Source: Sphingosinicella soli (GTDB lineage: Bacteria; Pseudomonadota; Alphaproteobacteria; Sphingomonadales; Sphingomonadaceae). Taken from it: 64,000 nucleotides of DNA. A program made the position numbers and the translations under genes. The stretch is taken from NCBI RefSeq assembly GCF_014199685.1, contig NZ_JACHNZ010000010.1, positions 1 through 64,000 of the forward strand, in the 5' to 3' direction. Position 1 is the first letter of the stretch, and each line of letters opens with the position of its first letter. A model generated the notes under the pieces. It had not been told where the DNA came from and searched no databases. It saw nothing but the letters and a program-made list of their open reading frames with translations. This document shows positions 11,968-14,903 of the stretch, in pieces.

Positions 11968-13392
11968 TCAGCCCGTGTGGCCGAACTGGACGGGGTTCGG
12001 GCCGCGCTGCTTTTCGTCGATGATGAGGCTGCTGTTGGCGGGCGGGCGGGCGCGCTGGCGGCAATGGGGGCGCTCGCAGAGTTCGCAGCCGAGGCCGATC
12101 GGCGTCGCCTCGCCGATGCCGAGGTCGAGTCCGCGCGCGTAAACGAGGCCGTGCGCGTGCCGTGCCTCGCAGCCTATCGCGATCGCATATTCGGGGCGGA
12201 CGCCGCCGTAGGGCTGCGCATAGGCGCGCACGGTGCGGGCGATGGATACGTATTTCGCGCCGTCTTCCATTTCCACGAGCTGGCGCAAAATCTGGCCCGG
12301 CCGCTCGAACGCCTTGTGCAGCGTCCACAGCGGGCAGTTGCCGCCGTGGCGCGAGAACGGAAAGCCGCCCGCCGAGAAGCGCTTGGAGATGTTGCCGGCG
12401 CGATCGACGCGGACGAGGAAGAACGGAATCCCGCGCGCGCCGGGCCGCTGCAGCGTGGTGAGCCTGTGTGCGACCTGCTCCAGCCCGGCGCTGAACCGCG
12501 CCTGCAGCAGATCGAGATCGTAGCCCGTCGCCTCGCAGGCGGTGTGGAACCGGCCGTAGGGCATCATCAGCGCGGCGGCGAAATAGTTGGCGAGGTTCTG
12601 GACGAGCAGACGCTCGGACGCTGTATCGGGCATGCCGGCGCGCGCCACGATCGCATCGATTTCGGCGCGGCCTTCGGAAAGCGCGAGCTGGTATGCCGCC
12701 TGAAAACTGCGCGAGGCAGGGTCAAGCAGCTCGGAAAGCTGAAGCTGGCGGCCGTGCAGGTCGAGTCGGCGGAGAAGTTCGGGCATCACGTCGGCCGGCA
12801 GGATCCGAACGGTGAGGCCGTGGCGCGCGCGCAGGCGGTCGCTCACCGCCGCATAGAAATCGGGTGCGGCAAGGCGCAGTTCGTCGGCGAGGGCCTCGGC
12901 GCGGGTTTCGAGTTCCGGGAAGTGATTGCGGCGATCCTGAATGAACGCCCGAACGAGTTCGAGCGGGCCGTCGCCTTGCGGGGCTTCGGTGCCGCTGCTG
13001 CGTGCATCGCGCAGCGCGCTGCGCAGCCGGACGATCGCCTGGGCGATGCCCGGCGACGTTGCAACGAACTCCTGCACTTCGGCGCGGCCGACATCGAGCC
13101 CCTTGAGCAGCGGATCGGCGAGCGCCTCGGAAACGTCGAGCGCGAGGCGGTCGTCGTCGGCGCCGGTAAGCTGGCGGAGGTCGAGATTATACTGGTGCGA
13201 CAGCTTGAGCAGAAACGGCGCGGTCAAGGGCCGCTGGTTGCGTTCGATGAGGTTCAGATAGGAGATCGAGACGCCCAGTTCCTCGGCCATGCGGGTCTGG
13301 GTGAGGCCGAGCTGGCTACGCAGGCGGCGCACGCGCGGGCCTGCGAAGAGCTTCCCGCGCGGTTCGGCGAGGTCGAGTGCGATGCTGGCCAT
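11968..13392 (-). CDS. XRE-family regulator of the RamB/ScfR type (short-chain acyl-CoA responsive)
   Basis: A 474-residue regulator. An N-terminal helix-turn-helix (about residues 19-75, with LGLTQTRMAEELGVSISYLN) is followed by an IrrE/ImmA-like middle region (about 160-300). A C-terminal DUF2083 domain carries clustered cysteines and histidine (CELCERPHCRQ). RamB of actinobacteria represses glyoxylate-cycle genes and ScfR-type proteins sense acyl-CoA status. Divergent transcription from aceA across a 218-base region fits control of isocitrate lyase and probably itself. The ligand is inferred from family knowledge. Confidence 0.88.
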   Translation of the reverse strand: MASIALDLAEPRGKLFAGPRVRRLRSQLGLTQTRMAEELGVSISYLNLIERNQRPLTAPFLLKLSHQYNLDLRQLTGADDDRLALDVSEALADPLLKGLDVGRAEVQEFVATSPGIAQAIVRLRSALRDARSSGTEAPQGDGPLELVRAFIQDRRNHFPELETRAEALADELRLAAPDFYAAVSDRLRARHGLTVRILPADVMPELLRRLDLHGRQLQLSELLDPASRSFQAAYQLALSEGRAEIDAIVARAGMPDTASERLLVQNLANYFAAALMMPYGRFHTACEATGYDLDLLQARFSAGLEQVAHRLTTLQRPGARGIPFFLVRVDRAGNISKRFSAGGFPFSRHGGNCPLWTLHKAFERPGQILRQLVEMEDGAKYVSIARTVRAYAQPYGGVRPEYAIAIGCEARHAHGLVYARGLDLGIGEATPIGLGCELCERPHCRQRARPPANSSLIIDEKQRGPNPVQFGHTG

Positions 13393-13610
13393 TTGTACGT
13401 CTTTTTTACTTTTTTACAACAATGACACGAAATTTACAGACAGTTACACACGTTTTTTACACGATTTCCTTGCTGCGAGTAGGGGAAAGACGACATGGCA
13501 TCAATAGCAGATTTACAGACCCTGCGATTCGGAAATGGTCCGATTGGAAGCCCCGCTTCCGCGCTGCAATGTAAAAACGCTGTGAATAGTTAACGACGGA
13601 GTCATACACG
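13393..13610. promoter_or_regulatory. Shared aceA/regulator control region with repeated TTTACA boxes
   Basis: This A+T-rich region holds TTTACA at 13413, 13433, 13456 and 13512, GTTACA at 13443, and the reverse form TGTAAA at 13570. The 10-mer atttacagac occurs exactly at 13432 and 13511. The 13413, 13433 and 13443 copies are spaced by 20 and 10 bases, close to helical turns. These are good candidates for binding sites of the adjacent RamB/ScfR-like regulator. GGAG at 13598-13601 is the aceA ribosome binding site. Confidence 0.55.

Positions 13611-14903
<1,293 letters not shown>

What the first reader, a model, noticed from the sequence alone, without database searches (positions are those of the whole stretch)
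13393..13610. Array of TTTACA boxes between aceA and its presumed regulator
At least four TTTACA copies, one GTTACA and one inverted TGTAAA occur within 218 bases, with an exact ten-base repeat. Spacings of 20 and 10 bases suggest binding on one face of the helix. The actinobacterial RamB motif is different, so this may be a separate operator for the alphaproteobacterial branch.
Basis: partly seen in the sequence, partly recalled or inferred. Interest (0 to 1): 0.55.

Follow-up and report, generated by a model that had tools for sequence, protein, structure and literature searches.

The report
RamB operator between ramB and aceA
The repeated TTTACA boxes are real and conserved, and most likely are where the acetate-metabolism regulator RamB binds to control itself and isocitrate lyase; such a site was already shown in a related bacterium, but here the boxes are spaced differently.

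Summary
The boxes are real: 4 TTTACA, 1 GTTACA and 1 inverted TGTAAA in the 218-bp gap between a ScfR-family regulator (RamB-like) and aceA; 5 of the window's 6 TTTACA lie here, and 0 of 20,000 shuffles of the gap reach that count. The organism belongs to the genus of Sphingosinicella microcystinivorans. Across 60 non-redundant divergent ramB-icl/ms gaps of other Alphaproteobacteria, TTTACA/TGTAAA occurs in 51 (103 copies, 10 expected) and shares top rank among 6-mers. A 26-bp site, roughly TTGTMAATATCTTTACAAnaTTACAA, is found next to ramB even without icl (18 of 19) and before icl genes not paired with ramB (6 of 6 with their own promoter). The half-site T[T/G]ACA is that of the experimentally proven Paracoccus denitrificans RamB boxes (Kremer 2023, PMC10370305), so this is a variant of a known operator. 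In this genus the spacing is altered (9-13 bp instead of 8) and a 39-bp core is almost invariant in 5 genomes. The helical-phase idea and the exact ten-base repeat do not hold up. The Paracoccus signal (an ethylmalonyl-CoA pathway intermediate) is unlikely here: no Ccr reached the cut-off in this genome. Nothing was shown by binding assay.

The parts
11968..13392 (-). ramB-like regulator, 474 aa: HTH, M78/IrrE-like domain, ScfR C-terminal domain
   Evidence: Pfam PF09856 215.8 bits, PF06114, HTH families; NF038139 RamB 418.7 bits, below its 700-bit cut-off; Cys353 and C436-X2-C-X4-C444 invariant in 10 homologues; only PF09856 match in the genome
13611..14903 (+). aceA, isocitrate lyase, 430 aa
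   Evidence: PRK15063 742.7 bits over cut-off; the only PF00463 gene found in the genome, matched in two pieces
13403..13428 (+). Site A: ramB-proximal, degenerate version of the family-wide 26-bp operator (TTTTTACTTTTTTACAACAATGACAC), spacings 8 and 9
   Evidence: gapped profile score 25.3, 0 of 60 single-base shuffles reach it; exact profile score only 5.6; TTTTACTTTTT invariant in 5 genus members
13413..13418 (+). TTTACA box 1 (TTTAACA in 3 of 5 genus members)
13427..13465 (+). Core block with three half-sites (TTTACA 13433, GTTACA 13443, TTTACA 13456), 38 of 39 columns invariant in 5 genomes
   Evidence: 22 of 20,000 column shuffles give a window this invariant
13433..13438 (+). TTTACA box 2, invariant in genus
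13443..13448 (+). GTTACA box 3; TTACA invariant in genus, first base G or C
13456..13461 (+). TTTACA box 4, invariant in genus
13497..13514 (+). Invariant block GGCATCAATAGCAGATTT running into TTTACA box 5 (13512-13517; TTTGCA in 2 of 5 genomes)
13564..13587 (-). Site C: inverted half-sites TGTAA (13570) and TGTGA (13581), 11 bp apart; the block ends 23 bp before the aceA ATG
   Evidence: both half-sites invariant in genus; same arrangement before icl in L005, TGTGAAAACAATGTAAAT

Best explanation
The array is the operator region of RamB (class 2 ScfR regulator), which binds T[T/G]ACA half-sites in the gap, represses its own gene through the ramB-proximal boxes (site A) and switches aceA between repression and activation through the core block, with the inverted pair near the aceA start (site C) as a further contact. 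Shown here: the boxes are over-represented, conserved, and tied to ramB genes and to icl genes whether or not these are neighbours. Inferred: that RamB is the binder, that it is a tetramer changing state on a CoA ester as in P. denitrificans, the division of repression and activation between sites, and that the ligand here is not an ethylmalonyl-CoA pathway intermediate.
For: TTTACA/TGTAAA in 51 of 60 other divergent gaps, 103 copies against 10.2 expected, level with TTACAA at the top of all 6-mers. A 26-bp profile exceeds the 99% background score (2.9) in 59 of 60 gaps when each is left out. Sites not used for training: upstream of 18 of 19 ramB homologues not paired with icl/ms, and of 6 of 6 icl genes that are neither divergently paired with ramB nor behind ms; in three genomes ramB and icl lie far apart or on separate contigs (L010/L050, L017/L052, L018/L058) and both carry the site. 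P. denitrificans boxes TGACAAACCTTACA and TGACAATACTGACT use the same half-site; RamB binds them (KD 1.9 uM) and mutation abolishes expression (PMC10370305). Within the genus, 38 of 39 columns of 13427-13465 are invariant against 201 of 357 four-fold sites. Whole own genome: TTACAN{3,5}TKACA occurs 4 times, 2 in the array. Only one ScfR gene in the genome.
Against: No binding or expression data for this organism. The family-wide 26-bp profile fits the window poorly without gaps (5.6; relatives 9-31) and finds no site with E up to 0.05 in any genus member. Half-site columns as a set are not significantly more invariant than the rest of the gap (35 of 40 against 124 of 178; 6.5% of random placements reach it). 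No promoter of sigma-70 type was found, so site positions relative to transcription starts are unknown. glcB, the other glyoxylate-cycle gene, has no TTTACA/TGTAAA upstream. The reversed control pattern occurs 6 times in the genome, more than the pattern itself, so that pattern count alone is not informative; only its clustering is.
Confidence: 0.85

Rival explanations
1. The boxes are sites of another regulator that reads direct repeats of TGTMA, above all PhoB (Pho box, 11-bp repeats of CTGTCAT, recalled).
For: Site C is two TGTRA half-sites 11 bp apart, and the one unlinked half-site cluster in the genome, C14:52888-52936, reads like a Pho box (CTGTCATAAAACTGTAATG). In this species TGTAA...TGTCA on the minus strand at 13423-13438 also has 11-bp spacing.
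Against: Across 60 gaps direct repeats of 11 bp occur in 1, of 8 bp in 38; the top 6-mer is TTTACA, not TGTCAT; the TGTCA half at 13423 is lost in the other genus members; the sites follow ramB and icl genes.
Confidence: 0.05
2. The TTTACA copies are -35/-10-like promoter pieces or simply AT-rich spacer sequence, with no specific operator.
For: The gap is 44% GC in a 66% GC window; TTTACA resembles TTGACA.
Against: Dinucleotide shuffles of the gap reach 5 copies 0 of 20,000 times; no sigma-70-type hexamer pair was found; family-wide enrichment has z about 30 with shuffles of each gap; preferred spacings of 8 and 11 bp.
Confidence: 0.04
3. RamB does bind, but only site A (the canonical remnant) and site C matter; the core boxes serve a second factor or are a neutral duplication.
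For: A 23-bp direct repeat, ACACGAAATTTACA/ACACGTTTTTTACA, suggests duplication; the family-wide site lies next to ramB.
Against: The core is the most invariant part of the gap in 5 genomes, while the box 13413 and TGACA 13423 vary.
Confidence: 0.15

Closest known systems
Class 2 RamB operator of Paracoccus denitrificans (Kremer et al. 2023, PMC10370305)
   Same: Divergent ramB and glyoxylate-cycle gene; half-site T[T/G]ACA; several half-sites in one orientation
   Different: There two 14-bp boxes (9-bp half-site spacing) separated by 18 bp in front of ms; here 6 direct half-sites at spacings 9, 11, 10, 13, 56 plus an inverted pair, in front of aceA. The signal there comes from the ethylmalonyl-CoA pathway, whose key enzyme was not found here.
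Actinobacterial RamB/PrpR (MccR) sites
   Same: ScfR regulator next to icl or prp genes; TTTGCAAA differs from TTTGTAAA by one base
   Different: TTTGCAAA-N-TTTGC(A/G)AA, 17 bp (PMC6765138, passages seen); no TTTGC in the window's gap; regulator scores below the NF038139 RamB cut-off
PccR of Rhodobacter sphaeroides (Carter and Alber 2015)
   Same: ScfR family
   Different: Known to me only through citations in PMC10370305; the paper is not held

Membership tests
ScfR regulator family | HTH plus ScfR C-terminal domain PF09856 with Cys of a 4Fe4S site | tested here: met
   PF09856 215.8 bits over cut-off 24, HTH_19/HTH_3, M78; Cys353, C436-X2-C-X4-C444; PrpR structures match, E 6e-106
RamB class 1 (actinobacterial) | NF038139 equivalog cut-off; TTTGCAAA site | tested here: not met
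   418.7 bits against 700; no TTTGC in 13393-13610 (sequence)
RamB class 2 | ScfR gene clustered with a glyoxylate-cycle gene | tested here: met
   divergent to aceA here; divergent to icl or ms in 138 fetched loci, duplicates and the window included
RamB class 2 | sequence clade with Pden_1365 | not tested
   no Paracoccus locus obtained (one search gave chance-level hits only)
P. denitrificans RamB operator | T[T/G]ACA half-sites | tested here: met
P. denitrificans RamB operator | two TKACA-N4-TKACA boxes 32 bp apart start to start | tested here: not met
   one pair at 9 bp (13414/13423), no second such box 32 bp on
Family-wide 26-bp operator defined here | exact spacing 11 (inverted) and 8 (direct) | tested here: not met
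   best exact score 5.6; a 1-bp-gapped fit scores 25.3
RamB operator | binding by the regulator | not testable with these tools
   needs footprint or gel shift
Pho box | 11-bp direct repeats of CTGTCAT (recalled) | tested here: not met
   DR of 11 in 1 of 60 gaps; site C has the spacing but TGTRA halves

The most novel reading that the evidence does not exclude
Class 2 RamB keeps one half-site code but tolerates very different operator geometries: a near-identical HTH (2 differences in 37 residues from G010) meets an 8-bp canonical site in G010 and a re-spaced 9/10/11/13-bp array in this genus, so the tetramer must bind flexibly; and in this clade, where the ethylmalonyl-CoA pathway seems absent, it must answer to a different CoA ester than in Paracoccus.
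Probability: 0.4. Interest if true: 0.5.

Novelty: new variant of a known kind. Interest (0 to 1): 0.38.

Why it matters
It gives a usable operator definition for RamB in Sphingomonadaceae, Bradyrhizobiaceae and neighbours, predicts a very small regulon (itself and icl), shows that two distantly related isocitrate lyase types (30% identity) sit under the same operator, and suggests that the Paracoccus induction model, which needs the ethylmalonyl-CoA pathway, cannot be general for this regulator.

Tried and rejected
Helical phasing: offsets 0, 9, 20, 30, 43 of the five upstream half-sites look near 10.5-bp periodic, but the family's own preference is 8 and 10-11, so this is not used as evidence. 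Exact ten-base repeat as a functional unit: not conserved in the genus. Regulon: the profile found no match up to E 0.05 in the own genome and one chance-level match at E 3.46; the half-site triple pattern found the array, a single hit on C3 that was fetched but not studied, and a Pho-like cluster. glcB as a second target: no boxes upstream. Testing class membership against the Paracoccus protein: a class-wide search of 385 genomes with the 80-bp Paracoccus fragment gave only short chance-level matches. Literature: searches listed no paper on this operator in Sphingomonadaceae; most subscription papers are not held, so this is weak evidence. Rows dropped before counts: 138 divergent gaps were reduced to 68 by regulator identity (80%) and to 61 (60 without the window) by shared 10-mers; loci whose regulator match began after residue 35 or whose partner lay over 900 bp away were left out. 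The 19 unpaired ramB loci were themselves reduced by shared 10-mers, one more being too short (L100), and still include several similar Bradyrhizobium sequences. One of the 18 that pass is marginal (L096, 3.0), as is L045 (3.1) among icl genes behind ms.

Full report
What is there. The gap 13393-13610 separates a 474-residue ScfR-family regulator (minus strand, start 13392) from aceA (plus strand, start 13611). It holds TTTACA at 13413, 13433, 13456 and 13512, GTTACA at 13443 and inverted TGTAAA at 13570, plus TGACA at 13423 and inverted TGTGA at 13581. Dinucleotide shuffles of the gap reach five TTTACA/TGTAAA in 0 of 20,000 trials, and seven T[TG]ACA/TGT[AC]A in 3 of 20,000.

Within the genus. 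Five genomes were aligned; the sixth, G003, has no match to either gene. The stretch 13427-13465 has 38 of 39 columns invariant; 22 of 20,000 column shuffles of the gap give an equally invariant 39-column window. Four-fold degenerate sites of the two flanking genes are invariant in 201 of 357. As a set, though, the eight half-sites (35 of 40) do not differ clearly from the rest of the gap (124 of 178; 6.5% of random placements reach it). Box 13413 reads TTTAACA in three of the five, TGACA 13423 is lost in the four others, and the second copy of the ten-base repeat is not kept.

Across Alphaproteobacteria. From 138 loci with a divergent regulator and isocitrate lyase or malate synthase, 60 non-redundant gaps without the window remained. 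TTTACA/TGTAAA is in 51 of 60 with 103 copies against 10.2 expected (z 30.1); TTACAA/TTGTAA is level with it (z 30.3). Half-site spacing is not random: direct repeats of 8 bp in 38 of 60, inverted TGTnA to TnACA of 11 bp in 25, 10 bp in 16, 19 bp in 21. A simple profile search gave a 26-bp site, about TTGTMAATATCTTTACAAnaTTACAA, used from 59 of 60 gaps. Leaving each gap out in turn, 59 of 60 exceed the 99% score of 588 background 300-bp windows; L019 does not. The gaps are related by descent, so these counts are not independent events.

Does it follow the regulator or the target? Both, which points to the regulator as binder. Sequences not used for the profile: of 19 regulator homologues not divergently paired with icl or ms, 18 exceed the threshold (L009 fails; L096 only just passes). 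Of eight icl genes not divergently paired with the regulator, the six with a promoter of their own score 10.6-22.7; of the two lying behind ms, L045 just passes (3.1) and L041 does not. In G006, G016 and G032 regulator and icl lie on separate contigs or about 179 kb apart, and both have the site; in L111, L135 and L140 they are in one neighbourhood but not divergent. A genome-wide profile search of 59 genomes found 12 places at E up to 0.05, 11 of them next to the regulator or before icl; 10 of these were in the training set, one (G006, unlinked icl) was not.

The window against the family rule. Without gaps its best score is 5.6, below all 59 sites used from relatives (9.1-30.7); a one-base-gapped fit at 13403-13428 scores 25.3. 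So the genus keeps the half-sites but has changed their spacing, adding a core block that is now the most conserved part. The HTH differs from that of G010 by 2 of 37 residues, while G010 has the canonical site. The P. denitrificans fragment also scores low (2.3) on the profile although its RamB binding is proven; the profile therefore describes the commonest arrangement, not the limit of what RamB binds.

Mechanism. In P. denitrificans (PMC10370305; abstract, sections 7, 8, 9, 11 and the first part of the primer table read) RamB binds two boxes before the glyoxylate-cycle operon, activates on acetate, represses on succinate, and changes from tetramer to dimer with beta-methylmalyl-CoA. From its printed wild-type and mutant oligonucleotides I read the boxes as TGACAAACCTTACA and TGACAATACTGACT. 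I infer a similar dual switch here. The ligand probably differs: crotonyl-CoA carboxylase/reductase (TIGR01751) passes its cut-off in 8 of 40 genomes, none of them this genome or any of the 27 with a strong regulator match. Which boxes activate and which repress, and where transcription starts, is not known; no sigma-70 promoter was found.

Rivals. A Pho-like reading fits site C's 11-bp spacing and a cluster elsewhere in the genome but not the family-wide spacing or distribution. Plain AT-richness is excluded by the shuffles.

Verdict. A real, conserved operator, best explained as the RamB site of this genus: a spacing variant of a site already known from P. denitrificans.

Noticed in passing
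L005, L007, L020-L025, L083-L147 and others against window 13611-14903: The regulator is divergently paired with either of two isocitrate lyase types (about 430 and 531 aa, 30% identical) or with malate synthase A, under the same operator; of 60 non-redundant gaps 26 have the short type, 28 the long, 6 malate synthase.
   Followed up: partly
G036, G037, G039, G041, G043, G045, G047, G049: The eight of 40 relatives with crotonyl-CoA carboxylase/reductase over the cut-off are among the 13 without a strong RamB match; none of the 27 with RamB has it.
   Followed up: partly
L184:2889-2939 (own genome C14:52888-52938): Pho-box-like repeat cluster TGTCACAAAACTGTAATAATTCATTTACACGACTGTCATAAAACTGTAATG between a cysD-like gene (name by resemblance, recalled) and a small lipoprotein-like gene.
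   Followed up: no
13497-13514: GGCATCAATAGCAGATTT is invariant in five genus genomes and explained by no box or promoter found.
   Followed up: no
L085, L127, L144, L164, L166 just before icl: A TGTAAAGGA-like or related box lies at the likely ribosome-binding site of short-type icl genes in several sphingomonads, e.g. L085, L144, L164, L166.
   Followed up: no
13425-13470: A 23-bp direct repeat (ACACGAAATTTACA / ACACGTTTTTTACA) suggests that the core block arose by local duplication.
   Followed up: no
L155-L177: All 23 newly fetched short-icl loci of the family have the regulator close by on the other strand (10 further genomes with a match were not fetched).
   Followed up: partly
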